Origin: Rhodothermales bacterium
Lineage (GTDB): Bacteria; Bacteroidota; Rhodothermia; Rhodothermales; JAHQVL01
Direction: 5' to 3'
NCBI GenBank assembly: GCA_034439735.1
Contig: JAWXAX010000070.1
Coordinates: forward strand, 1 to 48,964
Length of the DNA: 48,964 bases
Below are positions 10,512 through 34,059 of this stretch, piece by piece. The notes beneath the pieces are model-generated. The model worked only from the letters and a program-made list of their open reading frames with translations. It was not told where the DNA came from and ran no database searches. A program made the translations under genes and the position numbers. Within the stretch, counting starts at the first letter, position 1. Each line of letters begins with the position of its first letter.

Positions 10512-10523
10512 CCAGAAACGCCC

Positions 10524-13741: not shown

Positions 13742-13742
13742 T

Positions 13743-14740: not shown

Positions 14741-14745
14741 CCGTC

Positions 14746-15387: not shown

Positions 15388-15408
15388 CAACGCCCACCTC
15401 GTACCCTC

Positions 15409-17156: not shown

Positions 17157-17512
17157 CCGAATTCTGCCGCCAATGGATGGACGACGCCGGCTCGACGCTG
17201 GTCGAGGCGGTCGTCGCCGTCTCCCTCCTGATCGTCGTACTCACCCCGATGATCGGCGCCTTCGCGTACCAGGCCGGCCAGCACCGGTCCGAACGGCTCA
17301 CGCTGGCGCTGGCCGTCGGCAGGCGGCAACTGGAGGCCCTCGCTGCCATGCCCGAAGCCGCGCCCGACTCGGCTTCGACGTTCAAGGGGCGATGGCGGGT
17401 GGTGTCTACTGCCCGGCGCGATGGCCGGCTAATGGCGCTGGCGGTGGCCGTGTACGACGACCCCGCACCCACGCCGATCGTAACCCTCCAAACCCACCGG
17501 TTTGTGCCATGA
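17144..17512 (+). CDS. Minor pseudopilin (GspI-like)
   Basis: The 122-aa product has a leader MGQLTEFCRQWMDDAG followed by STLVEAVVAVSLLIVVLTP, with Glu at +5 of the mature protein. A short domain with LALAVGRRQLEALAAMP, a motif common in GspI, and a beta tail follow. It overlaps the previous gene by 13 bases and the next by ATGA, as is common for gspI-gspJ-gspK clusters. Assignment as I rather than H is based on the QLEAL motif and order. Confidence 0.75.
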   Translation: MGQLTEFCRQWMDDAGSTLVEAVVAVSLLIVVLTPMIGAFAYQAGQHRSERLTLALAVGRRQLEALAAMPEAAPDSASTFKGRWRVVSTARRDGRLMALAVAVYDDPAPTPIVTLQTHRFVP

Positions 17513-17973
17513 CTAACGATGCCGGCTTCACCCTGGTCGAACTGCTGGTCGCGATGGCCCTCACCCTGGTATCCGTCACCCTGGCCGGCTCCGCGTACCT
17601 GTTTCTGTCCCGCGCGGTCAACGGCTGGCAGGAGGATGTGCGCCTCGCGAACGCATTCCACACCACCCTGACCCGCCTGAGCGACGACCTGTACGATGCC
17701 GTGGCGGTGTACCGTAGGGCCGATTCGACCGTCGCGCTGGTACGTGTCGATGGCGATACGGTGGCTTATTCCTGGCGTGACGGAGCACTACGGCGGCTGG
17801 ACCACCCGATGCACGACTTTACGACAGTACTCGGGGTGACATTCGATCTCGCCGCCGATTCGTCGGGCGGGGCTCCCGGCTTTGAGGCCCACCTGGCCCT
17901 CGCCGGCCGGCGGCGAGTGCTCGAAACGACTACCCGCGTCAACCGGCGACATCCGTCGCCCTGGCCTCCATGA
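17509..17973 (+). CDS. Minor pseudopilin (GspJ-like)
   Basis: The 154-aa product carries a very short leader MTNDAG and the prepilin helix FTLVELLVAMALTLVSVTL. Its mature body has an LTRLSDDLYDAV segment and alternating beta strands ending in VLETTTRVNRR, resembling GspJ. It overlaps gspI-like and the next gene with ATGA. The order I-J-F with K upstream differs from the classical G-H-I-J-K arrangement. Confidence 0.73.
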   Translation: MTNDAGFTLVELLVAMALTLVSVTLAGSAYLFLSRAVNGWQEDVRLANAFHTTLTRLSDDLYDAVAVYRRADSTVALVRVDGDTVAYSWRDGALRRLDHPMHDFTTVLGVTFDLAADSSGGAPGFEAHLALAGRRRVLETTTRVNRRHPSPWPP

Positions 17974-19085
17974 GACCGCTCACCCTGGCATCTACCCCGG
18001 GCCGTCCCGCGCATCAGGGGGCCTGGCATCCGGCAAGGTGGATGTATCGCCGCGTCTCCCGTAAGGCGTTGGCCGCTTTCACGCGGAGCCTCGCCGTGCT
18101 GGTGGCCGCCCGGCTGCCGCTGCTGGAGGCCCTGGCTTCCGCCGGTCGTCAGACGCCAGCACCAGGGCTTCGCGCCGCGGCCGAGGCCGTGCTGGAATCC
18201 GTGCGCCGCGGTCAAAGCCTGTCGGCCGCGCTCGCCCGTCACCCGGATGCCTTCGATACCCTGTATGTGCAGCTCGTACGGGTCGGCGAAATGACCGGCC
18301 GGCTGGGTGACCTGCTGCTTCGCCTCGCGACCTATCAGGAAAAAGTGTACGCCCTGCGCCGCGCCGTGCGGCTCGCGATGGTCTATCCAGGCGTCATCGT
18401 CGCCCTGGCCACGGCCTGCGTGGCCTTCCTACTGGTCGTCATCGTCCCCACCTTCTCCGAGATGTTCGCCGATTTTGGGGCCGAGCTGCCGGCGCCGACA
18501 CGTGCGTTGCTGGCACTAAGCAAGGGACTGCGCGAGCACGCCGGGGTAGGAATCGCAGGTGGGCTTATTGTCGCCGCCGGTGCACGCCGGCTGCTCCGCA
18601 CCCCAGCCGGCTGGCGCTGGATGGACCGGGTGTCGTTGCGGATTCCGCTCGTGGGGCCGCTGTTGCGGAAGAGCCACGCCGCGCGGTTCTGCCGGACCCT
18701 CGGCACCCTGCTGGAGGGGGGCGTGCACCTCACCGAGGCGCTCGCAATCCTCGCGCGAACCAGCGGCCACAGCCAGGTCGAGGCCCTCGTCAGCCGGCTG
18801 GCGGTGCATGTAGAACGCGGCGGCCGGCTGGCCGAGCCTCTGCAGGGGAACGAGGTGTTCCCCGAGTTCGTGGTCCAGATGGTCGCCGTCGGCGAAGAGA
18901 CCGCCCACCTCGATGAGATGGTCCTCCACGCCGCGGGCTACTTCGAGCACGAGGTCGACGCCGCCGTGGAAACCCTGACTTCCGTGATCGAACCCATCCT
19001 GATCGCCGTCCTCGGCCTCGCGATCGGCGGATTCCTGGTGGCATTGTACCTTCCTTTGTTCGAGTTGAGCTCGGTCGTGCGATAA
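17970..19085 (+). CDS. gspF: Inner-membrane platform protein (GspF/PilC family)
   Basis: The 371-aa protein has two GspF domains, each followed by transmembrane helices. The first (about residues 30-150) contains FTRSLAVLVAARLPLLEAL and VRVGEMTGRLGDLL. A membrane segment VIVALATACVAFLLVVIVPTF follows, then the second domain (FCRTLGTLLEGGVHLTEALAIL, MVAVGEETAHLDEMV) and the final helix PILIAVLGLAIGGFLVALYLPLF. It would be turned by the GspE motor and push pseudopilins out. It is the last gene of the operon; 171 bases separate it from the giant-protein cluster. Confidence 0.93.
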   Translation: MRPLTLASTPGRPAHQGAWHPARWMYRRVSRKALAAFTRSLAVLVAARLPLLEALASAGRQTPAPGLRAAAEAVLESVRRGQSLSAALARHPDAFDTLYVQLVRVGEMTGRLGDLLLRLATYQEKVYALRRAVRLAMVYPGVIVALATACVAFLLVVIVPTFSEMFADFGAELPAPTRALLALSKGLREHAGVGIAGGLIVAAGARRLLRTPAGWRWMDRVSLRIPLVGPLLRKSHAARFCRTLGTLLEGGVHLTEALAILARTSGHSQVEALVSRLAVHVERGGRLAEPLQGNEVFPEFVVQMVAVGEETAHLDEMVLHAAGYFEHEVDAAVETLTSVIEPILIAVLGLAIGGFLVALYLPLFELSSVVR

Positions 19086-19256: not shown

Positions 19257-22200
19257 ATGCGGCTACTCTCCATCCCACTCAAACTGGATGTCCTACTTCT
19301 TGACCAGGACACCCCGGTGGTCGGGCCCCTCGTCCATTTCGAATGGATGCCCTACGTGGAGGATGGCCACGCGATCAACCCGGATGTCCCGTTTCTGAGC
19401 AGCGAGGTGCAGACGGAGCCCTTTAGTCCATCGCGATCCCTCCTCGGGAAAGGATGCCACCTCCACTGGGCCCTGCCGGCAGCCCTCACGCGCACCACCC
19501 CGCTCACTTCAAGCCAACGGGCGAGCGCGCCGGCGACACCTGACGACGAACCCCGATTTCCCCCCACGCCCGATCGCTGGCTCGTCCGACGGTCGCGCAA
19601 CAATCGAACAGATGCGTTGTGGCTGGTCGAAAGCGATTATTTCGCGCCGGCGCCGTCCGAGGGCATCCTCTACCCGATCCGCACCGACAGCGAACACGGG
19701 GTAAAAACCGTTTACCTGGGGCGGACGACCCGGCTGGACCTCCTGGCCCCGCGGCCGCCGACCCTCCCATCGGGCGACCAGGCCGGCTACCTTGGCTACC
19801 TGACGGCCATCGGGCACGGAGACCCGGCCTTCCACGCGTTTTATCCAAACTGCCGCTCCATCTTTGGTTTCTGGGACCCGGAGGTGACGGACGCGGACCG
19901 TGGATCGCTGCGGTACGAGATCGCCGGCTGGTACCATGCGGATGTGCTCGATCCTTTCGGTGGAAACGTGAAGGATAGGTGGGACCCCGCCATCCCCGAT
20001 GTGCAACGCGTGATTTCGGAAATAACACGCCAGTTTGGGTGGGATCTCACGTGCCTTTCGGCCGTCACGCAGCGGTCGGACCTCCCGGAACGGATCATCT
20101 GCCTGGCCCGCATCGACATCGTCGGCGAAAGCGCCCTTACCCTCCGCGATCAACCCGAGATACAACCTGCTACCGCCATCGCAAACACCGGCACGGAGGC
20201 GTTGTCAGCCCTCCTGTCCCGTACCGTGTATGGCGCTGATCGGGCAAAAGCCGGCCTGCTCGAAGAGCAACTCGATGCTCTCCATCTGGCCTCCCTCCTC
20301 GGAACGGATCAGCTCGACCTCGGCCCCCGATTCAAGGAGGCGCGCCATACCCGCGGCTTCTCGGCGCGGACCGGCCCCACGATCTGGCGCATCCGGCCGA
20401 GCCTGCCGGACGTGCGGGGAGACAAGGCGAATGCGGCTGTGCCGGACGCGGCCCTGCCCGATGGGCTGGCGGTTCGTCTGGACGAACTTAATAGCCTCCA
20501 ACAGGCGCTCGACGCTGTCACCGCGCGGCGCGAGGCGTCCGCCACGCAGCTCCACTCCGACTGGGTCAAGTACATGGAAGCCGCCTACCCGGTCGCCGGC
20601 GTGGCGGTGACGTATCCGAACATCGACGACATCGTCCGCTATATCGATGAAACGTCCCTGCCCGAAATCGACCAGCTCGTCCAGACTCAAAAGAGCCTCG
20701 CCGGCCAGATCGAACTAAAAAAAGCCGACATCGTCGCGCTCATCGCGCTATCGTCGCCAGAATTAGCACTCGAGCAACGACCGGGGCCCCGCTTCTGGCA
20801 ACCCAACGAGCCGGTCGTCCTCCTCAGCGGATACGCTGACGCCACCGACCGGCACGATAGCTCCGATATGCTGCCGTGCGCCTGTGTCGACGTCTCTGGA
20901 AGCGCCGATCTCAACACCTGGATCTGGGCGGGACCTTCGGCGGCGATGGAGACGCTCTTCAGCCAGGCCCCGCTAACGAGTCGATCCAACGGCTACTCGG
21001 TTTCCGACGGACGCACCGAGCACCCGTGCCTGCTCGAATGGGAGGTGGAGATGCGGCCCGTCGTCCAGCGCGACGCCCCGGACCCGGCGGGGCGGACGAT
21101 CGCGGCCGACTACTTGAACGCCAATTTCTCGTTCGATCCAGGAAGCGGAGACTGGATCGCTACGCAACCGACCCAGAACAGCACATCGCGCTACGCAGGC
21201 CGAAGTGTGCTCACGCCTCACGCATCGGAGAAGCTCCGACGCGAGCTGGAGGCCTTCTTCGCCGAGCGGGTCCCCGCCGGCAAGCGGGCGGCCTTCCGCG
21301 CCTGGGCCTCCGGCGCGCCGGCGGACCCCTTTCGATTGGCATGGCTCGCCCAGAACTGGACCGGTTTTGCCCACTGGTACCTGACCCTCGGCAGCCACCT
21401 CGCCGTATCGATGGGCGGCTCGTGGGTCGAGGCCTGCCTGGCCAGGCTCCAGGACATCATATCGCTGTACGACGAAAACCAGGCGCTCCGGTTGGATCAG
21501 GTCCGGCTTATCGCGACCGAAGGACTCCTGCGCGACGCGTTCGAGACGATGGACATCGACGAGGTCGACCCGGCGTCGCCATTGCCGGGTGCGCTTGGGC
21601 CGGCGTTTGTCCGCTGGTATCGCCGCGAGCTCCATCTGATCGAGTTTCTCGCGATCTACCGGGATCATGTCCACGACATGGACCACGTGTTATCCCAGGC
21701 CCTGAGCGGGTTTAACGACGCGCTGCTCATGCATTGGCAGGGCTACAATCTACCCATCGCGGACCCCATGGGGCTGCCGGATTACCAGGCGTTCACGAAG
21801 CGTGTCGCCGATGCCGTGGGGACGTCGCACCGCTCGATCCCGCAGCCCCTGGGCCGGCTCATGCCCCTGCACGCCGGCCAGCTCGACCTGCTCCGGTTGC
21901 GCCTCATCGATACCTTCGGGCGAGCGCGCATGCTGCCGGACGGGGATGTCGTCTACCCCTCCTCCTGGCGGGCCGACGACGACCTGTGCCACCTGCCGCC
22001 CCGGCTCGTCCAGCCTGCGAAACTCTCGTTGCGCTGGCTCTCGGCCTCCCACGCCGACCACCGCGAGACCACCGACGATCCGACTACCTCGCCCCTCTGC
22101 GGCTGGCTGATCGCGAACGATCTCGACGAAAGCATCGCCGTTTACACCGCGGACGGGAAGGTGCTCGGCGCGATCGATGACAGCGCCCGGCGCTGGACAC

Positions 22201-23039
22201 CCGTCCCGGGCGGCGGCCTCGCGGCCTCCGACGCCATCGAGAATCCCTACTTACGCGCGGTTGTCGGGCAGATCCAGGCGGCCGTGGACCGCGGATCGCT
22301 CCGCGATGTGCTGGACAATATGAACGAGGCGACAGCGGCCATCGACCCGGACACCTTCGAGCAGCACCAGGCGATCGCCCTGCTGATGAGCCGGCCGCTG
22401 GCGCTCGTACGCGTCGCCGTGGCCGTGCGCACGATGGGGCCACTGGCGATCGATCAGAGCTGGGACGATCTGGCCCGCGATATGTCGGCCGGCGCCTCGC
22501 TCGAGGAACGGAGTAACGCCGGCATGGATCGGCTACAGGTTCGGGTACAGATCGGCGACCGCGGCCGGCTGAACGACGGCGTGGTCGGCCTCTGGCCGGA
22601 GGGGGCGGACGATGACTCTGGCGCTGTCGTGCTGGAGCCGTACCAGCACCAACACGTGAGCACGGAGGCGCGTCCTGGTATTACGGTGACGCTGAACAGC
22701 CAGCAGCCGGCGCAGTTTGTCGCCTTGATGGATCCTCGCGCCGCCCTGTACGCCTTTACGGGCATCCTCCCGGCCAAATCCATCACGATACCCCCGATCC
22801 ATTTTTCCGACGCGCTCCAGTGCGTGGAGGTCTTTTTTCAGGCGTCGCCCGTGATTGCCGGGCTGGAGCTGATCGATCTCCCCCTGATGACGCTCGACGG
22901 CAAGGCCTGGACGTGGCTCGAAAAAGAAGGGGAGACCTGGAGCGAGCAGGAGATCGTGCCACCGGCTACCCAGCCGGCCTTCCAACAGACCCAGATGATC
23001 CGGGAAGGCTGGCTGAAGCTGCGGAATACGCCTGATTGA
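19257..23039 (+). CDS. Giant unrecognised protein 1 of the 19-34 kb cluster (1260 aa)
   Basis: I do not recognise a named family. The protein has no signal peptide or transmembrane segment. Distinct stretches include a FEWMPYVEDG/CHLHWALP N-terminal region, PDRWLVRRS (about residue 102), IFGFWDP, LEWEVEMRPV and YAGRSVLTPHA in the middle, an LLMHWQGYNLP motif, GWLIANDLDESIAVYTADG, QVRVQIGDRGRLNDGVVGLWP and FVALMDPRAALYAFTGILPAKSI near the C-terminus. About residues 405-498 are helix-rich with possible coiled coil. Aromatic- and proline-rich loops suggest a multi-domain beta-sheet structural protein. Starts at the first ATG in frame. It leads the cluster; its stop is 68 bases before the next start. 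Confidence 0.82.
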   Translation: MRLLSIPLKLDVLLLDQDTPVVGPLVHFEWMPYVEDGHAINPDVPFLSSEVQTEPFSPSRSLLGKGCHLHWALPAALTRTTPLTSSQRASAPATPDDEPRFPPTPDRWLVRRSRNNRTDALWLVESDYFAPAPSEGILYPIRTDSEHGVKTVYLGRTTRLDLLAPRPPTLPSGDQAGYLGYLTAIGHGDPAFHAFYPNCRSIFGFWDPEVTDADRGSLRYEIAGWYHADVLDPFGGNVKDRWDPAIPDVQRVISEITRQFGWDLTCLSAVTQRSDLPERIICLARIDIVGESALTLRDQPEIQPATAIANTGTEALSALLSRTVYGADRAKAGLLEEQLDALHLASLLGTDQLDLGPRFKEARHTRGFSARTGPTIWRIRPSLPDVRGDKANAAVPDAALPDGLAVRLDELNSLQQALDAVTARREASATQLHSDWVKYMEAAYPVAGVAVTYPNIDDIVRYIDETSLPEIDQLVQTQKSLAGQIELKKADIVALIALSSPELALEQRPGPRFWQPNEPVVLLSGYADATDRHDSSDMLPCACVDVSGSADLNTWIWAGPSAAMETLFSQAPLTSRSNGYSVSDGRTEHPCLLEWEVEMRPVVQRDAPDPAGRTIAADYLNANFSFDPGSGDWIATQPTQNSTSRYAGRSVLTPHASEKLRRELEAFFAERVPAGKRAAFRAWASGAPADPFRLAWLAQNWTGFAHWYLTLGSHLAVSMGGSWVEACLARLQDIISLYDENQALRLDQVRLIATEGLLRDAFETMDIDEVDPASPLPGALGPAFVRWYRRELHLIEFLAIYRDHVHDMDHVLSQALSGFNDALLMHWQGYNLPIADPMGLPDYQAFTKRVADAVGTSHRSIPQPLGRLMPLHAGQLDLLRLRLIDTFGRARMLPDGDVVYPSSWRADDDLCHLPPRLVQPAKLSLRWLSASHADHRETTDDPTTSPLCGWLIANDLDESIAVYTADGKVLGAIDDSARRWTPVPGGGLAASDAIENPYLRAVVGQIQAAVDRGSLRDVLDNMNEATAAIDPDTFEQHQAIALLMSRPLALVRVAVAVRTMGPLAIDQSWDDLARDMSAGASLEERSNAGMDRLQVRVQIGDRGRLNDGVVGLWPEGADDDSGAVVLEPYQHQHVSTEARPGITVTLNSQQPAQFVALMDPRAALYAFTGILPAKSITIPPIHFSDALQCVEVFFQASPVIAGLELIDLPLMTLDGKAWTWLEKEGETWSEQEIVPPATQPAFQQTQMIREGWLKLRNTPD

Positions 23040-23107
23040 GCCTCGTTGCTACTTCCCGATTGCGCCGCACCGCCACGCCTAACCGAAACCACCCTGACAA
23101 TCCCACC

Positions 23108-24889
23108 ATGCCGACTCACCCGCGCGAACATCCAATCCGTTTCACCCTGCTCAACCCCCAGCACGAGCCGTCGCTGCTCGTCTCGACGCGTGCCGAGGGG
23201 CACGTGATGCATCTGGCGCTGATCAACCGGACCGATCAGCCGCTCGTGGTGCCTGAACAGGCCACGTTCGAGCTGGTGTTTCACGACAACGTGCTGGTGG
23301 ATCGGCAATCCGTTGCCTGCCGCGTGCCCGATGGCTGGCGGTGGGAGCCCCTGCGCCTGACTGTCGTGCAGCCCGTGTCGCTGGCCGCCGGCGAGGCGCT
23401 GTCCTTTACCCTCACCCACGTGAAGGTGGATGAGCACCTCACAGCCAACGGCACCCGGGTGGAATTGAAGTATCAGCTGCCGGCCGGCGACGTACCGGCC
23501 CGCGCGGGCCTTTGTCTCCAGCACCTCGCCCTCGTGCGCCACCTCGGGCAGAAACTGCTACCCGTGCATATAGGCTTCGTGGGTGTGCGAACAATTCCGA
23601 CCGGCACGCCCCACCAGACCACCACCCTCCGGCTGCGCATCACGAACACAGGAAACGAGCCCCTGGCGTTTACGGCGGAGAGCCGGTTCACGTTTTCATT
23701 CGACGTGGGAGAGCCGAGCGTGGATTGGGCGCTCGGGACGGCGGACCAGGTGGCGGCTGTTGTGGTGAAGCGGGCCGATGGCGTCGATGCGCAGCGGACC
23801 ACGCAGGGAGGCGTGCCCTCCTGGACGGTGCTGCCGTTCACCGCGCCGGCCGCCCTGGCCCCCGGGCATTTCGTTGATATCCTGTTCAGTCATTTTGTCA
23901 GCCAGCATCCGCCCGGGGAAACCAATCTTTATATCGCCTACGAGGGCATTCCCGGCTTCTGGGACGGACGCCACGTGGTGGCCCTGGAGAAGGCCGCGCC
24001 GGCCGCCACCCAGAACGCCGTGGGCGGGCTCACCATGGAGCCCTCCGACCGGATCAAAGTCAACTTCAAGCCGGATTACTCAGACCACAACCAGACGTTT
24101 GTCGCCTTCGAGACCAACTACCTGGGCGATCCTTACCGGGGCCGGGCGCATCTCTACGCACCTACCGCCTACTACACAAACGAACCTGCCCTGACGCTGG
24201 CCGGCAACTACGGGGCCGGCGGGACGGTGGGGATCAACAAAACGACCCCCCAGGCCACGCTGCACGTAGGCGGGAATATCAAGACCGATAACAACCTCCT
24301 GCTCGAGCCAACGTCCAGCATCAAGGTCAATTTCCAGCCGGATTTCACGGACCACAACCAGACGTTTGTCGCCTTCGAGACGAACTACATGGGCGATAAA
24401 TACCGGGGCCGGGCGCATCTGTACGCCCCCACCGCCTATTACGCGAATGAACCCGCCCTTACGCTGGCAGGCAACTATGGGGCCGGCGGGACGGTGGGAA
24501 TCAACAAGACAACCCCGGAAGCCACCCTGCACGTCGGCGGAGACATCAAGGCCGACGGGACGATTTCGCCCGGCAGCGACAGAGCCTCGAAGGAAGACAT
24601 CTTACCCGTGGAGCCGGCCGACGTGCTCGCGAAAGTGCTCGACCTCCCCATTAACCACTGGCGCTTCAAGGCGGACGCCGGCGCGCGCCACATCGGCCCC
24701 ATGGCCCAGGACTTCCACGCCGCCTTCGACGTCGGCGCCGACGACCGGCACATCAGCGTCCTCGACGCCGACGGCGTCGCCCTCGCCGCCATCCAGGGCC
24801 TCCACGCCCTGCTCGTCCAGAAGGAAGAGCAGATCAATGCCCTCGAAGCACGCCTTGCCGCGCTGGAGCGCGGTGTGACCATCGCCTAG
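23108..24889 (+). CDS. Tail-fibre-like protein with C-terminal S74 chaperone domain
   Basis: The 593-aa product (ATG at 23108; a TTG at 23036 would overlap the previous stop) begins with about 300 residues of Ig-like beta sandwich, apparently two domains. Two 89-residue repeats follow (from residues 316 and 405), each with NQTFVAFETNY, RGRAHLYAPTAYY, NEPALTLAGNYGAGGTVGIN and ATLHVGG. The last 104 residues are a peptidase S74 intramolecular chaperone domain: SDRASKEDI, LPINHWRFK, RHIGPMAQDF, ADGVALAAIQGL, then a heptad-rich coiled coil. In phage tail spikes this domain trimerises the fold and releases itself by cutting before the Ser of the S-D motif (here Ser490, Lys495). A trimeric fibre is inferred. 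Confidence 0.88.
   Translation: MPTHPREHPIRFTLLNPQHEPSLLVSTRAEGHVMHLALINRTDQPLVVPEQATFELVFHDNVLVDRQSVACRVPDGWRWEPLRLTVVQPVSLAAGEALSFTLTHVKVDEHLTANGTRVELKYQLPAGDVPARAGLCLQHLALVRHLGQKLLPVHIGFVGVRTIPTGTPHQTTTLRLRITNTGNEPLAFTAESRFTFSFDVGEPSVDWALGTADQVAAVVVKRADGVDAQRTTQGGVPSWTVLPFTAPAALAPGHFVDILFSHFVSQHPPGETNLYIAYEGIPGFWDGRHVVALEKAAPAATQNAVGGLTMEPSDRIKVNFKPDYSDHNQTFVAFETNYLGDPYRGRAHLYAPTAYYTNEPALTLAGNYGAGGTVGINKTTPQATLHVGGNIKTDNNLLLEPTSSIKVNFQPDFTDHNQTFVAFETNYMGDKYRGRAHLYAPTAYYANEPALTLAGNYGAGGTVGINKTTPEATLHVGGDIKADGTISPGSDRASKEDILPVEPADVLAKVLDLPINHWRFKADAGARHIGPMAQDFHAAFDVGADDRHISVLDADGVALAAIQGLHALLVQKEEQINALEARLAALERGVTIA
24053..24559. repeat. Two 89-residue (267-bp) tandem repeats in the S74 fibre gene
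   Basis: The first copy begins near ATCAAAGTCAACTTCAAG (24053) and the second near ATCAAGGTCAATTTCCAG (24320), 267 bases apart. They share long blocks including NQTFVAFETNY, RGRAHLYAPTAYY and NYGAGGTVGIN. The DNA has diverged mainly at third positions, so the duplication is not recent. Confidence 0.85.
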
Positions 24890-24903
24890 ATCTCTAGAGC
24901 TCA

Positions 24904-26058
24904 ATGCCTTTTCTGAATGAGATACTCGCCCTGGACGTTGCGCCGGCGAACATTCAATTTGTCCCACCGGGCATTGCGCCCACTCGTTCGGTATCAGATC
25001 GCATTACTACCCTGGCAGGGGCCAGTGATGCGTATAAAGCCTTCCTTGAGGCGTTCTCAAGCTTCCTGCAGCCGCCGCATACCCTGTTTGTTGCGGGGCT
25101 CTCGTCGATTGAGCTACGCATGCGGCAGGAGGTGTTGAGCCGGGCCGGGCGAGCCGCATTCGGAGATCTGGTGACGTTGGATGCAATTGAGGGCGCATTG
25201 CTTGAAATCAAATCCGATCGCTCGGACGAAACCGGGCGGCTGGTCAATGGCTTGTTATCGAAAGTACTTACTGGAATTGAAAATGCGTTCATGTTTCCCC
25301 CGGGTGCCGATCGGGCACGGGCTGTGACCCTCACGGGATTCGTAGACCCCGCTGATTTTAGAACGAAACTGATCAAGGCTGGACGAACCTGGAAGGACCC
25401 CAGCGTGCCCTGGCAACACGGTGAGTTTACTCATCGCCTACAGTGGTGCGCCGGCATGCTGGCGCTTCCGGGGCCTATCCCGTGGAGGCAATATTTCATT
25501 GAGACGGGTCAATATGCGGACGATGCGCCTTTTGGCGCGGTAATGATAAATGGACTTTGGGACGCTCTGGCGGATCGCAACCAGTTTGAGGGTGTGTACA
25601 ACACACCGTATTTGACAATGACCGCTGACGATTTTCGGTCGCCAGAGAATTTACATGCCTGGTTAGTAGACAAATATCTGGACCCGGACTGGGACCATAT
25701 CCGCTTGCTAAGCACATTCATTTTCGCTCGCCAGACAAGGCGTGAGATCGACAAAAATAACGGGATTGCCTACGCCTACGCTACCACTGATTTTCCACCC
25801 GCTCGTCGAACCTGGGATGCATGGTCTCGTGTGTTATTTAATAACCGAAACGAGGGTGCACTTTCCCCGGCTGAAAAAGCTGTGCTCGCTCGTGCCTGGT
25901 ATCGATTGACTAAGTTAGTGGGAGGTGACCCCGTGAATGCAATTCTGGAAATCTCACCGGACGATGTTGCTATACCAGCGCCAGGCATCTATGTACCGGA
26001 CCGGCTGCTTCTCGCCTATCTCGATCTTGAATTAAATGGAGATGGCTCCTCTCCATGA
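24904..26058 (+). CDS. Unrecognised 384-aa protein, GC-poor relative to neighbours
   Basis: I recognise no family. The protein is soluble, with no signal peptide, and appears mainly helical (ASDAYKAFLEAFSSFLQ, SSIELRMRQEVLSRAG, LHAWLVDKYLD) with a central aromatic, acidic stretch (PWRQYFIETGQYADD). Base composition stands out: two 60-base lines I counted, 25201-25260 and 25621-25680, have 32 and 27 G/C (53% and 45%), versus 40 of 60 (67%) in a line of the next gene. Codons ending in A/T (GAA, TTT, AAA, AAT) are frequent. It sits 14 bases after the S74 gene and 22 bases before the DUF6603 gene, in the same direction. Possible recent acquisition. Confidence 0.78.
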   Translation: MPFLNEILALDVAPANIQFVPPGIAPTRSVSDRITTLAGASDAYKAFLEAFSSFLQPPHTLFVAGLSSIELRMRQEVLSRAGRAAFGDLVTLDAIEGALLEIKSDRSDETGRLVNGLLSKVLTGIENAFMFPPGADRARAVTLTGFVDPADFRTKLIKAGRTWKDPSVPWQHGEFTHRLQWCAGMLALPGPIPWRQYFIETGQYADDAPFGAVMINGLWDALADRNQFEGVYNTPYLTMTADDFRSPENLHAWLVDKYLDPDWDHIRLLSTFIFARQTRREIDKNNGIAYAYATTDFPPARRTWDAWSRVLFNNRNEGALSPAEKAVLARAWYRLTKLVGGDPVNAILEISPDDVAIPAPGIYVPDRLLLAYLDLELNGDGSSP

Positions 26059-26080
26059 GCAGTAAAATTCTTTCCAACAC

Positions 26081-29000
26081 ATGCCGACCCCACCCCGCGA
26101 CCTGCTCCAGCACCTGTCTCAACCTACTTCGGCCGACCTCCCCGTCACGGCCGACTGGGGGCCCGTCCATACATTCATCGCGGCCTGGATCCCCGCCGGC
26201 GTCGTCCTCCGCCAGCCGGCGGTGGAATCGTCCACGGCCGATGACCTGTGGCTGACGGGCACGCTCGCGCAGGCCACGACGGGCGAGCTGGCGTGGCCGG
26301 CCGGCGGAACCGTGCGCGTCCACCTCACCCTCCTGCCTCCCGCCGGCGACGCCGCCGAGACACTGAAGGGCGACCTCTTCCTCCAGGCCCCCGCCAACTG
26401 GAAATTCGGCGACAGCTTCCCGTTGATGCCGAAAACCACGGACCTGCGCGACCTCTCGAACCCGACCCAGACACCGATCCTCGACGGACTGGCCATCCGC
26501 CACGCCTGGCTCGTATTCTCCTCCCACAGCCTCAACGAAGCGCTCACCCTTGGCGGACAAGCCTTCGGCGCCGTCACGCTCGCGCCGGGCCTCAACGCCA
26601 TCATGCGAATGACCCCCGCCGGCGTCGTCGGGGCGCTGGGCATTCTCGCGGCGGAGGAGGTTACGCTCGCCGGCCCCATCGTCCGCGCCGGCGGCGAAAT
26701 GGGGCTCACGCTACCCGGGATCCGCTTTCCGTGGGAAGCGCCGCACCTCCCGGGCATCCACCTCACCGCCGCATTTTCGGCGGAAATCGCCATCGGCGCG
26801 AGCCTGAATTTCAGGCTCGGCTTTGGCGTCTACAGTCCACTCACCGCCGCCTGGCTGACGGACAACCCGGCGCTCGAACCGGTGATGGCTCTGTTCGGCG
26901 ACCTCGCGCTCCCACAGGCCGGCGTCACCGCGCGCCTCGCCGCCGAACGGATGCTGGGGCAGAGCGACACGGTGGAGTGGCTGGCGGAGTTCGCCGCCAG
27001 CGCCCACGAGGGGATCGACGTGGACCACCTCGCCGCACTCATCGGCGACGGCCACACGCCCGATTTTCTCAAGACGCACCTCCCCGATGTAGTCGCCCGC
27101 GCCCTCGCCGCCGTGAGCCTGAAAGGACTCACCATCGAGGTTGTCGCCGGCCCAAACGGCGCCCACCGCGTGGCCAACACGGGCTTCTATGTTGGCGTCG
27201 ATACCGGCAAGGTGACGCTCATCGAGGGCGTCCTCAGCCTCGACGCCATCGAGGTCGTCGAGGTCATCGTCCGCGATCCGTTTGGCTCCTCGCTGCCCAT
27301 CACGGATCGCCTCATGGGGGCCGTGGTCTTCAACGCCACGTTCCTCGATGCGTCGGTGCTGGGGATGGTTGCCCTGCCGGACTTCTCCATCGAGATCCAA
27401 CTCGCCGAGGCGAAGGCGATCCCCATCGGGAAGCTGTTCGAGGAACGGGGGCTGGACGCGAATCTGCGTCCGGCGGACCTCGTCGTCGAGGAATTCGTGG
27501 TCCGCGCGGACCTCGAGGGGACGTTCAGCATCGCCGCGAGCATCGCGGCTGTGCCGGCCTGGTCGGTCGTGGTCGGCGGGACGTCGGTGGCCCTCGAGGA
27601 GGTCGCGTTTAACGCCACTCGGTACAGCTGGGGCGACAAAGAGGCCTCGTTTTCAGCCCTGCTGCGCCTCGGCGACCCGGATCACCAGCCCTTCGAACTC
27701 CTCGTCTCCGCCGACGTGCGCACCGGCGCCGGCGCCGGCTGGCGCTTCCGGGGCGCCCTCCAACGCAACGAGGTCATCGCCGTCGGCGCCCTCGTCGAAC
27801 GGCTCGCGCACCACTTCGGCGTCGTCGCGGTCCCGAAAAGCATCAGCGATCTGGTGGTGGATGAATTCCACATCGACTTCGACACCGGCAAAAAGGACTT
27901 CAGCTGCGCTTTCGCCGTGAAATTCCCGCTCGATGGCGAGGAACGCCACGTCCGGCTCGGCCTGGAACTCCGCCACCGGCTCTCGGACGGCGGGTACGAC
28001 GCGACGTTTGATCTCACGCTCGGGACGCTGCGTTTCCAACTCATCGACCGGGCGGACCTCCTCCTGGCCCGGTATGCCGGAGACGTGACCCTCAATCCGA
28101 AACAACTCGCGGCTTCGCTCTCGGCTACCGTGGCGCAGGTCATCCCCGATGGCATCGAGCTGACCGTCAAAGAGGCCTTTTTTCTCCATCAAACCGATCC
28201 CCCTGCCGGCTCGGGCGGAGCGCCAATACCCACCGGGCGGTTTCTGTTCGGGATCGAACTGGGCGCCCGGCTGGATGTCAGCCGGCTGCCGCTCGTAGGC
28301 CAGGCGTTCTCCGGCGACACGCTCGTCGTGGATCGGCTCAACTTCCTGATGGCGTCCGCGGCGTTTACTTCGCCGGAGATCACCACGTACAACCAGTACC
28401 TCGCCCCCGATGGCGCCATCCCCGTCCCCGAGGCGCCGAAAGGCGAAGCCGCCGCGAGTGCCCGGCTGCCGGCCGGCCCATCGGTCTCCGCCCGACTGAG
28501 CTGGAGCGGGCACGACATCCCCCTGTTCATGGCCGCCGGAGCGCCTCAGGGGCTGTTGACAGGTTCGCCGGCCCCACCGGCGAATACGCCGCCGCCGGCA
28601 GAATCCGGAGCCCCGAAATGGTACACGGTCGAGCGCTCGTTCGGGCCCGTTCACCTGAGCCGGGTGGGGGCGCAGCTGAAGGCGAACGAGTTGCACATCC
28701 TCCTGGATGGTGGGCTCGGACTGGGCGATGTGACCCTCTCCCTCATGGGGCTGAGCGTGGGCTCACCGCTCGCCGCGTTTAAGCCGGAATACGACCTGCA
28801 GGGGCTGGGCCTGGCGGTCGATGTAGGCTCAGTGGGTATCAACGGCGCCTTTCTTCATATCCACCACGACGCCATCGCCGATCAACCTGCCTTCGACGAA
28901 TACGCCGGCGCCGCCGGGATTCGGCTGGCGTCGTTCGCGCTAGGCGCCATCGGCTCCTACGCCTCGCTCGACGGCCACCCGTCGCTGTTTGTCTACGCCG

Positions 29001-30601
29001 TGCTGGACATGCCCATCGGCGGGCCGGCGTTTTTCTTCGTCACGGGCCTCGCGGCCGGCTTTGGCTACAACCGCGCCCTGCGCATGCCGGGCATCGACCA
29101 GGTCGCGGCGTTCCCGCTCGTCCAGGAAGCCGTCAGCGGGGCGACGGGGAAAGACATCGCCACCGAACTGAAGGGGCTCCAGGCCTACCTCCCTCCGTCC
29201 TCCGGCGACCGGTTTTTTGCCATCGGCATCCGGTTTTCGTCGTTTAAGCTCATCGACTCGTTTGCCTTGCTGGCGGTAAGCTGGGGGCATCAGGTGGAGG
29301 TGGATGTGCTCGGGCTCTCCACCCTTGTCGTGCCCGTCGCCGAAAAGCCCGGCGAGCCGGATCCGCTGGCGCGGGTCCAGCTGGCCCTGAAGGCGACGTT
29401 CCTCCCCGATCCGGGTTTTCTGGGCGTCAGCGCGCAGCTCACGCCGGCCTCCTACATCCTCTCGAAAGCCTGCCAGATCACCGGCGGCTTCGGGTTCTAT
29501 AGCTGGTTCGGCGGCCCGCACGAGGGGGATTTCGCGCTTTCGATCGGCGGTTACCATCGGCACTACCAGCCGCCGGCGCACTACCCGCAGGTGCCCCGCC
29601 TCGGTTTTAACTGGCAGGTCAGCGACGAGCTTTCGCTGAGCGGCCAGGCCTATTTCGCCCTGGTGCCCTCGGCGATCATGGCCGGCGGCCGGCTCGAAGC
29701 CGTGTGGAAAAGCGACAACATAAAAGCCTGGTTCATCGCGGATGCCGACTTCCTCCTGGCCTGGAAGCCGTACCACTACGAGGCCGAAATCTATGTGGAT
29801 GTCGGGGTATCCTACACCTTCAACCACTTCGGAAGCCACACCTTCACGGCAGATGTCGGGGCGGACCTCTCCGTCTGGGGGCCCGACTTCGCCGGCACGG
29901 CGACGATCCACCTCGCCTTCGTGAGTTTTACGATTTCGTTTGGCCCGAGCCCCAGTACGAGCGGCAAGCCGATCGACTGGACGTCGTTTAAGACGATGCT
30001 GCCGGCTGAGGACGAGCGGATCACGTTCGGCGTCGCCGGCGGGCTCATCAAACAGGGCCCGAAACGGTCGAACGGCGTCCAGCACCTAGGCGTCATCCAC
30101 CCGAAAGACCTCGCGATCACCATCCAGAGCGCCGTGCCGGCGAGCCAGGTGACGGGCATCGAGCTTGTAGGCTCAACGCCGGCCTTCGGGATACCGCCGA
30201 TGGACGTCCGGTCGCCCGACTCCATGCTCTCCGTCACCTTCTCCGGTCCGACGCCCTTCACCACCTCCACGGCGCTGCTCAAACGGCAGCCCTCGGCGCT
30301 GTGGGGTTCGGACGGATTGGAAAACGCACGCAGCGGAGCCGGCCCGGAGATGACCGACCCGCTGCTCTGCGGGATCCGCGTCGCGGCGCCCTCGCCGGAG
30401 GTGCCGGACAGCACGCCAGCGATCACGCCCCGCCAATTGGGGTACCAGACGACGCTCCGGCCGGACGCCTTCGCCCCGACCGCCCCGATGCCCTGGTTGC
30501 CCGGACCCCTCGCCGCCGGTATACCCTCTTCCCCCTTCGCCGACTGGCCCACCGACACCGTCACCGCCGACTACTTCGAGGCCCTCATCCGGCCGGCCTG
30601 A
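26081..30601 (+). CDS. DUF6603 domain-containing giant protein (1506 aa)
   Basis: The C-terminal half (about residues 850-1320) carries DUF6603 features: FFFVTGLAAGFGYNRALRMP, ITGGFGFYSWFGG, YHRHYQPPAHYPQVPRLGFNW, SGQAYFALVPSAIMAGGRLEAVW, AWFIADADFLLAWKPYHYEAEI and ADLSVWGPDFAGTATIHL. The N-terminal half is a long succession of beta-rich segments rich in Ala, Gly and Leu, with no recognised domain. A proline-rich linker (about residues 825-845) joins the halves. No signal peptide or membrane helix is obvious. DUF6603 has no known function. The ATG at 26081 follows a non-coding 22 bases. A long beta-sheet structural protein is the likeliest reading. Confidence 0.85.
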   Translation: MPTPPRDLLQHLSQPTSADLPVTADWGPVHTFIAAWIPAGVVLRQPAVESSTADDLWLTGTLAQATTGELAWPAGGTVRVHLTLLPPAGDAAETLKGDLFLQAPANWKFGDSFPLMPKTTDLRDLSNPTQTPILDGLAIRHAWLVFSSHSLNEALTLGGQAFGAVTLAPGLNAIMRMTPAGVVGALGILAAEEVTLAGPIVRAGGEMGLTLPGIRFPWEAPHLPGIHLTAAFSAEIAIGASLNFRLGFGVYSPLTAAWLTDNPALEPVMALFGDLALPQAGVTARLAAERMLGQSDTVEWLAEFAASAHEGIDVDHLAALIGDGHTPDFLKTHLPDVVARALAAVSLKGLTIEVVAGPNGAHRVANTGFYVGVDTGKVTLIEGVLSLDAIEVVEVIVRDPFGSSLPITDRLMGAVVFNATFLDASVLGMVALPDFSIEIQLAEAKAIPIGKLFEERGLDANLRPADLVVEEFVVRADLEGTFSIAASIAAVPAWSVVVGGTSVALEEVAFNATRYSWGDKEASFSALLRLGDPDHQPFELLVSADVRTGAGAGWRFRGALQRNEVIAVGALVERLAHHFGVVAVPKSISDLVVDEFHIDFDTGKKDFSCAFAVKFPLDGEERHVRLGLELRHRLSDGGYDATFDLTLGTLRFQLIDRADLLLARYAGDVTLNPKQLAASLSATVAQVIPDGIELTVKEAFFLHQTDPPAGSGGAPIPTGRFLFGIELGARLDVSRLPLVGQAFSGDTLVVDRLNFLMASAAFTSPEITTYNQYLAPDGAIPVPEAPKGEAAASARLPAGPSVSARLSWSGHDIPLFMAAGAPQGLLTGSPAPPANTPPPAESGAPKWYTVERSFGPVHLSRVGAQLKANELHILLDGGLGLGDVTLSLMGLSVGSPLAAFKPEYDLQGLGLAVDVGSVGINGAFLHIHHDAIADQPAFDEYAGAAGIRLASFALGAIGSYASLDGHPSLFVYAVLDMPIGGPAFFFVTGLAAGFGYNRALRMPGIDQVAAFPLVQEAVSGATGKDIATELKGLQAYLPPSSGDRFFAIGIRFSSFKLIDSFALLAVSWGHQVEVDVLGLSTLVVPVAEKPGEPDPLARVQLALKATFLPDPGFLGVSAQLTPASYILSKACQITGGFGFYSWFGGPHEGDFALSIGGYHRHYQPPAHYPQVPRLGFNWQVSDELSLSGQAYFALVPSAIMAGGRLEAVWKSDNIKAWFIADADFLLAWKPYHYEAEIYVDVGVSYTFNHFGSHTFTADVGADLSVWGPDFAGTATIHLAFVSFTISFGPSPSTSGKPIDWTSFKTMLPAEDERITFGVAGGLIKQGPKRSNGVQHLGVIHPKDLAITIQSAVPASQVTGIELVGSTPAFGIPPMDVRSPDSMLSVTFSGPTPFTTSTALLKRQPSALWGSDGLENARSGAGPEMTDPLLCGIRVAAPSPEVPDSTPAITPRQLGYQTTLRPDAFAPTAPMPWLPGPLAAGIPSSPFADWPTDTVTADYFEALIRPA

Positions 30602-30648
30602 TCTCATTCCGCACCCAACCCACGCCCTAACTCCTCCACGAGACCCCC

Positions 30649-33600
30649 ATGCTGACCGCAGACTTCGGGATGATCGATGACGAAATCGGCAGTACGTCGT
30701 TCGGCGGACCTCGCTTTCTCCAGGCGTTTGTCGGAGGCTTCCCAACGACGGCGTTTACCGTGAGCCTGAAGGTCCGATCGACCTCCCCCGGCATGCTCAT
30801 TTCCCTGGGTGACGATGAGACCGGTAGTGTCGACTGGACCCAGGCGAGGTTCTCGATCGACATCTGGTCGCAGTCGGTCACGGTCGGCTTCGGGCAGACC
30901 CGAGGCGTGGTGGTCTCCCTGGCGACGAACCTGCTGGATGGCGCGACGCACCACCTGGCCGTCACGTGGAGCCAGTCGGCCGCCGGCGCAAACGGCGCTA
31001 CCGTCGTCGTGTATGTCGATGGCCGGCAGGTGGGACAGCGGTCGTGGGTGTTCACGGACGACGGCGTCGAACCGGGCTTTATCCCGCGCATCATCGCATC
31101 CGGCCCACTGTTTATCGGGTATCGCCCCGCGCAGCACAACGAACTGCAACCGAGCGGCATTTTCGCCGGCGCCCTCCGGGACCTGAGGGTGTGGGCGCGG
31201 GTGATGACGCCGGCCGAGGTCGCCAGCGACCAGACGGCCGTCGTGGCCGGTACGGAGCCCGGTTTGTACCTGTCGCTGCCGCTGGATCCTGCCTCGCGCG
31301 ACTATCCCTCCAACCGATTTGTCGACCAATCCCCCAACCGGTTCGAGGCCCTGGAAATCGTCATCCAGGACAACGCCGTGTCGATGGGCAGCGTCTGGTC
31401 GTTCAACGGGTTTCCCGTCGGCAGCCGGACGGTCACGATGTGGCTCCGGTGCGGCGGCGACGCGGGCGGGACGCATCTGTTCACCTATTCCGATTATTCG
31501 AACAGCGAGCCGATGGACAACGCCGGCGACCGCTGGTCGATCGCGGACCCGTCCGGCCTCCGGATCAGCTCGAGCGGTTCCGTCGGGGTCTCGGTCAACG
31601 ATGGAAAATGGCACCACGTCGCGGTCGTCTGCCACCGCGAGGCCGGCGAGCCGATCGAGGACATCGTCTATATCGACGGCGTGCAGCGCGCCAGGATGGC
31701 GGTCCACTCCGAGGGCACGCTGACCGACCACCAGCGCCTCATCCTGGGCGGATGGCTGGCGACGGATGCCACCGACAGCGTGTATCGTGGGGAGATGGCC
31801 GGCGTCGCGATCTGGTCCGGCCGGCGCTCCCACCAACAAATTGTCGATGAGATGCACGGGCATCTCGCGGCCTCTTCGCCCCAGGATCCGTTCCCGTCGA
31901 CCCTCGTGGCCTGGTGGCCGCTCGCGCCGGAATCCGTCGGTCTCGGCGTTGGTCAGGGCATCGGTGTCTCGATCGAAAGCAGCCGCTGGGGGAGCCGGCT
32001 CGTCCGTCCCACGAAGAGCGAGACCCCCGTGGACGAGCTGGATCGCCCCATCTATTTCGTCGAAAAACACGAACCCGCGCTTAAATCAGGCGCCTATTCC
32101 GTCCGCGTCCAGCAAACCATCCAGGGCGAACGCTTCGAGTCGACGGCGGATTTCCATGTGGCCGGCCCCCGGTTTCACCTCACGCCCAGCGATATCCAGG
32201 CGATGTTTCCTCCACCCGGCAGCATGGGAGACCACGCGCATGCCCTGCCCCACATCGTCCTTACCCGGAGCACGTTGCCCTGGGAGCGCCTGGCCATGGC
32301 ATCCACGCCGTGGCTGGCCGTACTGGTGTTTGATGAAGGGGAGATCAAGGACGCCGGCGTCAAACCCCTGAAGGCGCTCGCCCTGGTCGACGCCGCAGGG
32401 CGAGCGGTCGAGGCGGATAGCGAGGCAGGCGAATCCGGCGACGACCCGGTGACCTACATCACCGTCGCTGCCGACACGCTGAAGACCCTCCTGCCCTCCG
32501 CCGCTGATCTGAAACTACTCGCGCACGTGCGGCGGGACGAAGACGACAACGAACGCGCCGTCGTCCTGGGCAACCGGTTGCCGAAAGCGGATGCCCCCGG
32601 CATCGTGCACCTCGTCTCGTTGGAAGGACGCTACGCCGACGGCCGGCTCAGCCCCGCCGCGGGTGATGTGACGCTCATCAGCCTGGCGACATGGCGATTC
32701 AGCTGTGTCGCCGGCGGGCCGAGCCTGGCCGGGCAGCTCAACGCGCTCGACGTGGCCTCCGCACAGACGACCACCCCGCTGCGGCACCGCCTGCGCAATG
32801 GCCAGAAGTCGATCTCCTGGTATCGAAGCCCGTTTAGCCCCGAGCCGGCGGGGGTGGGGGATCCAGATGAAGCGATCCACGCCGATGCCCTGCTGGGCAT
32901 GGCGGCCGGCCGGATGGATGTCACCTACGCCGCCGCATGGGAGCTGGGCCGGCTGCTGACGCTGGCCAATAAGCATGTGGCTTCGCAGCTCTTCCTGTGG
33001 AAACGCTGGCATGCGCGGGACCTGATGGCCGTTCGGCGCCTGGTGGTGCACCACGGCCCCAACCATGGTTCTGCCCAGGCCGCCCTGCCGCCCGATCTGC
33101 CGGCGGTCATCGACGATTGGTTCGATACACTACGCCTCCTCCGGCCAGTCCCATTCCAGTACCTCATCCCCGACGAGGCCATGCTGCCGCCTGAATCGCT
33201 CCGGTTGTTTAAGGTGGATCGGCGCTGGCTGGCGCACCTGCTGCACGGGGCGTTCGCGGTGGGCCACGCGCCGACCCGGACACCGCCAGCGGATCTGCCC
33301 GAGGCGCCGGATCCCGATGACGCCCCGCTATGTGGATTTCTGCTCCGCTCGTCCGCCGTCACCCAGTGGCCCCATCTGACCATCCAGGCCAGCGGGAAAC
33401 GCGTCGACACCACGGACGGCGAACTGCCTGAACCGTTGACGCGGGTGCGCCTGGAGGTCCTCTCGCCGGGAATCCTGCTGGCCCTGTTCGAGGGCGAGCG
33501 TATCCGGTCCCTGGATGTCGGCCTGAAGCCTGCTACCCTGCACGCCGGCTTCGACGTGTCAGCCGCCGGCGTCGTCAAAAAGCGGCCCCGGGATGCCTCG

Positions 33601-33780
33601 GGTCAGCCCCAAACGGCCGTCGACATCGCGCTTACGCCGATGCGCCGATTCCAGGCCGAGGCGTTCAAGGCCACCCTCGAATCCCTCAACCTGTTCGACG
33701 GCCCCATCACCTCCGCCGAATTCGCGCTGGCCCTGATCGATGGGGTCGAAAGGGTGCGGATCGTGGCGAAGAACGAGTAA
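30649..33780 (+). CDS. Double LamG-domain giant protein (1043 aa)
   Basis: Two concanavalin/LamG-like domains occupy about residues 1-205 and 228-410. They show FTVSLKVRS, HHLAVTWSQS, VVVYVDGRQVG, FAGALRDLRVWARVMTPAEV in the first, and TVTMWLRCGG, HHVAVVCHRE, DIVYIDG, GEMAGVAIWSGRRS in the second. From about residue 500 a separate unrecognised region begins with FHVAGPRFHLTPSDIQAMFPPPG and LPHIVLTRSTLPWERL, with later HHGPNHGSAQAALP. No signal peptide or transmembrane segment is seen. LamG domains bind carbohydrates or proteins, so this subunit may mediate surface contact. Last gene of the cluster; 47 bases after the DUF6603 stop, with a clean end before the MazE remnant region. Confidence 0.85.
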   Translation: MLTADFGMIDDEIGSTSFGGPRFLQAFVGGFPTTAFTVSLKVRSTSPGMLISLGDDETGSVDWTQARFSIDIWSQSVTVGFGQTRGVVVSLATNLLDGATHHLAVTWSQSAAGANGATVVVYVDGRQVGQRSWVFTDDGVEPGFIPRIIASGPLFIGYRPAQHNELQPSGIFAGALRDLRVWARVMTPAEVASDQTAVVAGTEPGLYLSLPLDPASRDYPSNRFVDQSPNRFEALEIVIQDNAVSMGSVWSFNGFPVGSRTVTMWLRCGGDAGGTHLFTYSDYSNSEPMDNAGDRWSIADPSGLRISSSGSVGVSVNDGKWHHVAVVCHREAGEPIEDIVYIDGVQRARMAVHSEGTLTDHQRLILGGWLATDATDSVYRGEMAGVAIWSGRRSHQQIVDEMHGHLAASSPQDPFPSTLVAWWPLAPESVGLGVGQGIGVSIESSRWGSRLVRPTKSETPVDELDRPIYFVEKHEPALKSGAYSVRVQQTIQGERFESTADFHVAGPRFHLTPSDIQAMFPPPGSMGDHAHALPHIVLTRSTLPWERLAMASTPWLAVLVFDEGEIKDAGVKPLKALALVDAAGRAVEADSEAGESGDDPVTYITVAADTLKTLLPSAADLKLLAHVRRDEDDNERAVVLGNRLPKADAPGIVHLVSLEGRYADGRLSPAAGDVTLISLATWRFSCVAGGPSLAGQLNALDVASAQTTTPLRHRLRNGQKSISWYRSPFSPEPAGVGDPDEAIHADALLGMAAGRMDVTYAAAWELGRLLTLANKHVASQLFLWKRWHARDLMAVRRLVVHHGPNHGSAQAALPPDLPAVIDDWFDTLRLLRPVPFQYLIPDEAMLPPESLRLFKVDRRWLAHLLHGAFAVGHAPTRTPPADLPEAPDPDDAPLCGFLLRSSAVTQWPHLTIQASGKRVDTTDGELPEPLTRVRLEVLSPGILLALFEGERIRSLDVGLKPATLHAGFDVSAAGVVKKRPRDASGQPQTAVDIALTPMRRFQAEAFKATLESLNLFDGPITSAEFALALIDGVERVRIVAKNE

Positions 33781-33794
33781 GAACGTGATCAAAG

Positions 33795-33857
33795 TCAGGG
33801 CGAAAACAGTTCGGATAAAACGCGAAATACCTGCTCCTGGGTGGCCGCATCAATCCG
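33795..33857 (-). pseudogene. MazF/PemK C-terminal scar
   Basis: Starting inside the end of the antitoxin gene but in another frame, the minus strand encodes RIDAATQEQVFRVLSELFSP followed by TGA. This matches the usual last helix of MazF/PemK toxins (a conserved Asp/Thr cap, then V..L..L). The toxin core with its catalytic arginines is absent. I infer that an internal deletion removed almost all of mazF and left its tail fused just behind mazE. Confidence 0.45.
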
Positions 33858-34059
33858 TTAACACATCGTCTCCTTGCTCAGCCATGCTGGCAAACGCTGC
33901 ATCCCAATCTTTCCGAGGGCGACTGACCGCCTGGATGACGATCGTGTTATTGGCTACTTCTAGCTCGACCTCGCCCGAAAGGCCGCTTTCTAGTAGGGGC
34001 TTCGGAATCCGAATGCCCTGCGAGTTGCCGATTTGTATGATGCTTGTTTTGATGGTCAT
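33850..34059 (-). CDS. MazE/AbrB-type antitoxin (orphan)
   Basis: The 69-aa product has a SpoVT/AbrB swapped-hairpin DNA-binding domain: IIQIGNSQGIRIPKPLLE followed by VELEVANNTIVIQAV. The C-terminal tail (RPRKDWDAAFASMAEQGDD) is the normal toxin-neutralising extension of MazE. It has a clear Shine-Dalgarno sequence (GGAGGT, complement of 34065-34070) five bases before the ATG, unusual for this window. No toxin gene follows; only a short MazF-like tail remains (33795-33857). The antitoxin may still autoregulate its promoter. Confidence 0.82.
   Translation of the reverse strand: MTIKTSIIQIGNSQGIRIPKPLLESGLSGEVELEVANNTIVIQAVSRPRKDWDAAFASMAEQGDDVLTD

What the first reader, a model, noticed from the sequence alone, without database searches (positions are those of the whole stretch)
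19257..33780. Five-gene cluster of giant, signal-less, beta-rich proteins: candidate undescribed system
Five collinear genes (1260, 593, 384, 1506 and 1043 aa), with gaps of 14-68 bases, encode unrecognised proteins plus an S74-terminated fibre, a DUF6603 protein and a double LamG protein. None has an obvious signal peptide or membrane segment. Several long motifs (for example PDRWLVRRS, YAGRSVLTPHA, FHVAGPRFHLTPSDI) look like conserved family signatures rather than random sequence, so the set may recur elsewhere. The combination (fibre with self-chaperone, adhesive LamG, long beta proteins) suggests a multi-subunit extracellular or particle-like assembly. What it does is inference.
Basis: partly seen in the sequence, partly recalled or inferred. 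Interest (0 to 1): 0.87.

Follow-up and report, generated by a model that had tools for sequence, protein, structure and literature searches.

The report
Conserved operon with swappable toxin-like gene
Five neighbouring bacterial genes turn out to be one copy of an undescribed gene set found in at least ten bacterial phyla, in which three large proteins of unknown kind always travel with an adhesive fibre and with one interchangeable enzyme gene, which looks like a machine for carrying toxins to other cells, although that function is inferred and not yet tested.

Summary
The five genes exist as described, lack signal peptides, and form a recurring module. Of 84 related loci, 79 of 80 with room have P5 beside the DUF6603 protein P4, and all 48 with enough flank have P1. 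In 296 genomes of the phylum the P1 and P5 families occur only in genomes with DUF6603.

The third gene is a variable slot. Directly 5' of DUF6603, 66 loci carry 25 unrelated families: metallo-beta-lactamase, EEP nuclease, GIY-YIG- and HNH-like proteins, lipase, LCAT, trypsin, subtilase, M91, RIP-like, DUF4135, and here DUF5636. Sister modules with 74% identical DUF6603 proteins hold unrelated slot genes. P2 homologues share an N-terminus but carry changing binding domains (LamG, S74, tail collar, PLAT, lectin).

Best explanation (0.6): a polymorphic effector-delivery complex, with payload P3/X, receptor-binding fibre P2, and chassis P1, P4 and P5. It is not phage, contractile-injection or listed anti-phage defence machinery. 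P1 has no fold match in the PDB. P4 resembles amphipathic beta-barrel or beta-belt proteins only distantly. Delivery, assembly, target and release are all inferred. No paper in the searched library mentions DUF6603.

The parts
19257..23039 (+). P1, 1260 aa, chassis protein with no Pfam family; family consensus GxHLHWxLPDALT...PNRWLVxR...ESDxL
   Evidence: family in the module at all 48 loci with enough flank and only in DUF6603 genomes of the phylum; AF2 pTM 0.83, no PDB fold match at E<=1
23108..24889 (+). P2, 593 aa (617 aa from TTG 23036): conserved N-terminal region, fibre-like GIG(T/N)KTTPxATLHVGG repeats, C-terminal Peptidase_S74 chaperone (about 24575-24727)
24904..26058 (+). P3, 384 aa: occupant of the variable slot (candidate payload), DUF5636 domain at residues 112-182
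   Evidence: slot position compared; single copy in the genome
26081..30601 (+). P4, 1506 aa: DUF6603 protein (domain residues 850-1317, about 28628-30031), long amphipathic beta-meander
30649..33780 (+). P5, 1043 aa: two N-terminal LamG stretches (about 30739-31224 and 31573-31809) joined to the conserved P5 core (residues about 470-1043, 32056-33777)

Best explanation
The five genes are one copy of a widespread polymorphic effector-delivery module. P3 is the payload, an interchangeable toxin or effector enzyme, here of the DUF5636 kind. P2 is the receptor-binding fibre: a conserved base joined to changeable binding domains, here folded and trimerised by an S74 self-chaperone. P1, P4 and P5 are the constant chassis that holds the payload and brings it across the target membrane. 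P4, a very long amphipathic beta-sheet protein, is the best candidate for the shell or translocation pore. Here the two LamG domains on P5 add adhesion. The proteins would be made without signal peptides, assembled in the cytoplasm and released by lysis or an unknown route. SHOWN: gene set, order, co-occurrence, slot swapping, binding-domain swapping, absence of signals and of phage or eCIS parts. INFERRED: assembly into one complex, payload toxicity, delivery, pore role, target and release.
For: P5 lies beside DUF6603 in 79 of 80 loci, and P1 is present in all 48 loci with enough flank and on the same strand. In 296 phylum genomes DUF6603 occurs in 13, P5 in 10 and P1 in 7, as nested sets. 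P1 also occurs on all 7 plasmids that have DUF6603. The slot before DUF6603 has 25 unrelated families in 66 loci, with 8.4% of pairs homologous against 99-100% for P1, P4 and P5. Families found there include MBL, EEP nuclease, HNH, S8, trypsin, Lipase_3, LCAT, M91 'effector protein', RIP-like, DUF4135 and DUF5636, with key catalytic motifs present in most checked. Near-sister modules have swapped slots, with at least 34 slot changes on the P5 tree. P2 homologues carry LamG in 26, S74 in 9 and Collar in 4 of 44, plus PLAT and B_lectin, a set like that reported for eCIS fibres (PMC12923769). P4 and P5 are fused in L076. The slot gene sits a few bases from P4 with no immunity-sized gene between.
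Against: No assembly, toxicity or secretion evidence exists. The commonest slot family, ComEC-like MBL (20 of 66), is not a classical toxin. The slot proteins share no detectable docking domain. No release or lysis gene is conserved in the neighbourhoods. P4 fold matches have TM scores of at most about 0.3. The DUF5636 function is unknown; its only paper hit lists it beside a T6SS VgrG.
Confidence: 0.6

Rival explanations
1. An intracellular conflict (abortive infection) system: P1, P4 and P5 sense or store an invader signal and unleash the variable enzyme inside the producing cell.
For: Effector-swapping modules without signal peptides are typical of such systems. Many carriers are filamentous or multicellular bacteria (Cyanobacteria, Herpetosiphon, Actinomycetota, Chitinophaga), as reported for NTP-dependent conflict systems (PMC7159879).
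Against: No NTPase or nucleotide-signalling domain was found in P1-P5, and no PADLOC model matches them. P2 carries extracellular binding domains and fibre repeats. RIP- and M91-like slots point to targets outside the cell.
Confidence: 0.15
2. A secreted or surface-held degradative and adhesive complex: P2 and P5 bind a substrate or particle, the slot enzyme digests it, and P1 and P4 are the scaffold.
For: Lipases, proteases, nucleases and phosphoesterase-like MBL could be nutritional. LamG and lectin domains bind glycans. A T2SS-like operon lies just upstream in the window.
Against: No signal peptides. RIP-like, M91, GIY-YIG, HNH and DUF4135 slots are not digestive. No glycoside hydrolases were seen in the slot.
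Confidence: 0.12
3. Substrates of the adjacent type II secretion-like system (8982-19085): the five genes are its dedicated cargo.
For: Same strand, 171-base gap; both are absent from the two sampled family relatives.
Against: None of the other sampled module loci has these T2SS genes nearby. The proteins lack Sec or Tat signals.
Confidence: 0.05
4. A remnant or domesticated phage tail or contractile injection system.
For: S74, Collar and Gp10_C domains in P2 homologues.
Against: No match in phages or viral contigs. No gp25 baseplate gene in the own genome. P1, P4 and P5 match no phage family of note.
Confidence: 0.03

Closest known systems
Extracellular contractile injection systems (eCIS: Afp, PVC, MAC)
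   Same: Gene clusters without signal peptides, spread over many bacteria and some archaea, with variable toxin genes and tail fibres that swap S74, collar, laminin and lectin domains (PMC8213781, PMC12923769)
   Different: No baseplate gp25 gene in the own genome; no sheath or tube family recognised among P1-P5; the chassis proteins P1, P4 and P5 are unrelated to listed phage or eCIS proteins
Polymorphic toxin systems (Rhs, CDI, T6SS and MuF-linked)
   Same: Constant partner genes with many non-homologous enzyme toxins in one position
   Different: The payload is a separate gene and not a C-terminal domain; no adjacent immunity gene is evident; no shared trafficking domain (100)
Tc (ABC) toxin complexes
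   Same: Idea of a large signal-less multi-protein chassis with a variable payload
   Different: No Rhs, SpvB or TcA-type Pfam family in P1-P5 (9); P1 model has no PDB fold match
DUF6603 (PF20248)
   Same: P4 is a clear member (E 8e-142)
   Different: Only an annotation label: no paper in the searched library names it, and its neighbours are annotated 'hypothetical protein'
LptD, pilus ushers, ApoB beta-belt
   Same: Long amphipathic antiparallel beta-sheet; Foldseek E about 1e-5 to 1e-3 (98)
   Different: TM-scores at most about 0.3 and whole-fold rmsd over 20 A, so an analogy of local beta architecture and no proof of kinship

Membership tests
DUF6603 (PF20248) | Match over the curated cut-off | tested here: met
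   473.8 bits against cut-off 27
DUF5636 (PF18686) for P3 | Match over the curated cut-off | tested here: met
   33.4 bits against cut-off 25, partial coverage 48-112 of 193
eCIS | Baseplate gp25-type gene (PF04965) in the genome | tested here: not met
   No match in the own genome, 98% complete
eCIS | Sheath and tube proteins in the cluster | tested here: not met
   No such Pfam or PHROG match in P1-P5; no further gene conserved around the module (31, 32)
eCIS | Fibres with swapped receptor-binding domains | tested here: met
   P2 homologues: LamG_3 26, S74 9, Collar 4 of 44
Polymorphic toxin system | One position occupied by many unrelated enzyme domains beside constant partners | tested here: met
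   25 homology groups in 66 loci; 34 or more changes on the tree
Polymorphic toxin system | Constant trafficking domain joined to the toxin | tested here: not met
   No cross-family homology among slot proteins
Polymorphic toxin system | Adjacent immunity gene | tested here: inconclusive
   Gap between slot gene and P4 is mostly under 60 bases; distant immunity genes were not excluded
Polymorphic toxin system | Toxic activity of the payload | not testable with these tools
   Needs expression assay
Tc toxin complex | TcA/TcB/TcC (Rhs, SpvB) domains | tested here: not met
   No such Pfam match
Phage or prophage | Homologues of chassis proteins in phage genomes | tested here: not met
   No match for P4 or P5 in phage records, none for P4 in viral contigs
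Anti-phage defence systems (PADLOC) | Match to a defence model | tested here: not met
   None for P1-P5
T2SS substrate set | Sec or Tat signal peptides | tested here: not met
   Hydropathy scan only, no dedicated predictor

The most novel reading that the evidence does not exclude
A new class of toxin-delivery particle, unrelated to contractile, Tc or type III-VII machinery, spread over at least ten bacterial phyla and an archaeal MAG, whose payload gene and receptor-binding fibre are exchanged between lineages on a constant three-protein chassis.
Probability: 0.5. Interest if true: 0.95.

Novelty: categorically new. Interest (0 to 1): 0.86.

Why it matters
If right, it is a new kind of bacterial weapon or delivery device that sits in well-sequenced genomes as 'hypothetical protein', with a ready list of dozens of unstudied effector enzymes in its slot. 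The slot gives an easy rule for finding new toxins: read the gene just before DUF6603. Even if delivery is wrong, a constant three-protein set with a swapping enzyme gene across many phyla is an unexplained, testable pattern.

Tried and rejected
A single-sequence P1 scan of genome contigs found nothing; the DUF6603 alignment was needed. Sequence searches of the PDB with profiles of P1, P5 and P4 gave no credible relative, nor did slot representatives. Foldseek with P1: no hit at E<=1. Viral structure library with P4: only weak beta-protein hits. Profile comparisons show no detectable relation of P1, P4 and P5 to one another. Link with the T2SS operon rejected as a general feature. Phage origin rejected. 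A shared docking domain in slot proteins was looked for and not found. The flanks in two family relatives did not show a clean empty site. Slot assignments at L049, L050 and L069 were dropped as likely spurious frames in high-GC DNA. Slot genes were called by longest open frame, so a few may be mis-called.

Full report
1. What is in the window. All five ORFs are present as described. Pfam gives DUF6603 for P4 (E 8e-142), S74 for P2, two LamG stretches for P5, DUF5636 for P3 and nothing for P1. NCBIfam and PHROGs add no function. No signal-like or membrane segment appears in a hydropathy scan (no dedicated predictor was available). The genome is a 5.1 Mb, 304-contig assembly. It shares its class with G065, whose two modules match those of a Balneolaceae genome (L074, L081), so it lies in or near the Bacteroidota (Rhodothermia/Balneolia) by inference.

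2. The cluster recurs. DUF6603 was found in 13 of 296 genomes of the phylum (12 over the cut-off). Around those hits, P1 and P5 homologues lie beside DUF6603 in seven genomes, the window's included. A scan of genome contigs with a DUF6603 alignment brought 80 loci. They come from Cyanobacteria, Chloroflexota, KSB1, Aminicenantes, Actinomycetota, Bacteroidota, Kapaibacterium, Acidobacteriota, Myxococcota, Bacillota, Pseudomonadota, Verrucomicrobiota and a Methanoculleus MAG. In 84 non-duplicate loci of this type, P5 follows DUF6603 in 79 of 80 with room, and P1 is present in all 48 with 8 kb upstream and 7 kb downstream, always on the same strand. Two orders occur: P1-P2-X-P4-P5 (45 loci, the window's order) and X-P4-P5-P1-P2 (28 loci). 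Because those loci were picked by DUF6603, the reverse test matters. Searched on their own over the same 296 genomes, the P5 family rings in 10 genomes and the P1 family in 7, every one inside the DUF6603 set. On plasmids, all 7 records with DUF6603 also have P1.

3. The third gene is a slot. The gene directly 5' of DUF6603 is unlike the rest. Among 66 loci it falls into 25 groups with no detectable homology between them, and 8.4% of pairs match, against 98.8% for P1, 98.9% for P4, 100% for P5 and 87% for P2. Pfam names for slot proteins are metallo-beta-lactamase (commonest), Exo_endo_phos, subtilase, trypsin, Lipase_3, LCAT, Peptidase_M91 (named 'Effector protein'), HNH (sub-threshold), RIP (sub-threshold), DUF4135 and, in this window, DUF5636. 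A GIY-YIG-like motif is seen in G039. Most catalytic motifs checked are present: HxDxDH-type in most MBLs, HExxH in M91, GHSLGG in both Lipase_3 proteins, GDSGG in the trypsin, SDH in the EEP proteins; they were not found for LCAT, HNH or RIP. Close relatives swap the slot: Microcystis L037 and L044 have 74% identical DUF6603 proteins with unrelated slot genes, and L099 and L113 (67%) carry RIP-like and HHxVP-type proteins. On a P5 tree of 62 rows the slot family changes at least 34 times. This is the pattern of an exchangeable payload.

4. P2 swaps binding domains. P2 homologues share the N-terminal region and GIG-type fibre repeats. Their remaining domains vary: LamG_3 in 26 of 44, S74 in 9, phage Collar in 4, Gp10_C and Lactonase propeller in 2 each, and PLAT, B_lectin and others once. 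The eCIS literature reports S74, collar, laminin, lectin and lactonase domains on injection-system fibres (PMC12923769, PMC8213781).

5. The chassis. P1 models well (pTM 0.83) with a long central helical hairpin and mixed alpha/beta parts, and has no PDB fold match. P4 models as a long antiparallel meander of strands, many of them amphipathic, with moderate confidence (pLDDT 77.9, pTM 0.56). Its PDB matches are LptD, pilus ushers, porins and ApoB, at low TM-score. P4-type proteins also occur in Gram-positive bacteria and an archaeal MAG, so a resident outer-membrane role in the producer is unlikely. A shell, lipid-binding belt or pore acting on a target is more plausible (inference). P4 and P5 are fused in Actinophytocola (L076), which supports contact.

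6. What it is not. No DUF6603 relative is in phage records or viral contigs, the own genome lacks a gp25 baseplate gene, and PADLOC has no model for the five. The T2SS-like operon just upstream (8982-19085) is not near any other module, so it is probably only a neighbour here.

7. A sister module. The same genome (C301, L034) and five others carry DUF6603 with a different partner set (about 1100, 1800 and 600 aa proteins). The 1100-aa partner is a distant P5 relative in three genomes (E about 2e-4 to 5e-4).

8. Judgement. The module and its variable slot are shown by sequence. That it carries toxins to other cells is inferred from slot content, binding-domain exchange, lack of signals and lack of an evident immunity gene. 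DUF6603 and its accession appear in no paper of the searched library, which lacks most subscription journals and all preprints, so prior description elsewhere cannot be ruled out.

Noticed in passing
window 8982-19085 (+): Compact type II secretion / type IV pilus-like operon (ATPase, secretin, PilN-like, pseudopilins, GspF) that is not found in the two sampled family relatives (GspF search: one 22% hit, one none).
   Followed up: partly
window 33850-34059 (-): 69-aa MazE/AbrB-like antitoxin ORF (by eye) between P5 and the oxidoreductase gene with no toxin ORF beside it.
   Followed up: no
window 37245-39623 (-): HerA-like ATPase ORF (DUF87), with weak PADLOC matches to mad8 and HerA defence models.
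   Followed up: no
L034 (own genome C301) and G211, G217, G033, G111, G080: Second DUF6603 module type with partners of about 1100, 1800 and 600 aa; the 1100-aa partner looks like a distant P5.
   Followed up: partly
L021-L022 (G099): DUF6603 protein of 3227 aa, twice the usual size, in the same module context.
   Followed up: no
L040 and L064: Herpetosiphon aurantiacus DSM 785 carries two modules about 28 kb apart, both with metallo-beta-lactamase slot genes.
   Followed up: no
L118 (Paenibacillus polymyxa plasmid p-YT9A): The module lies about 9 kb from a cluster annotated as phage baseplate protein V with a GH-E nuclease.
   Followed up: no
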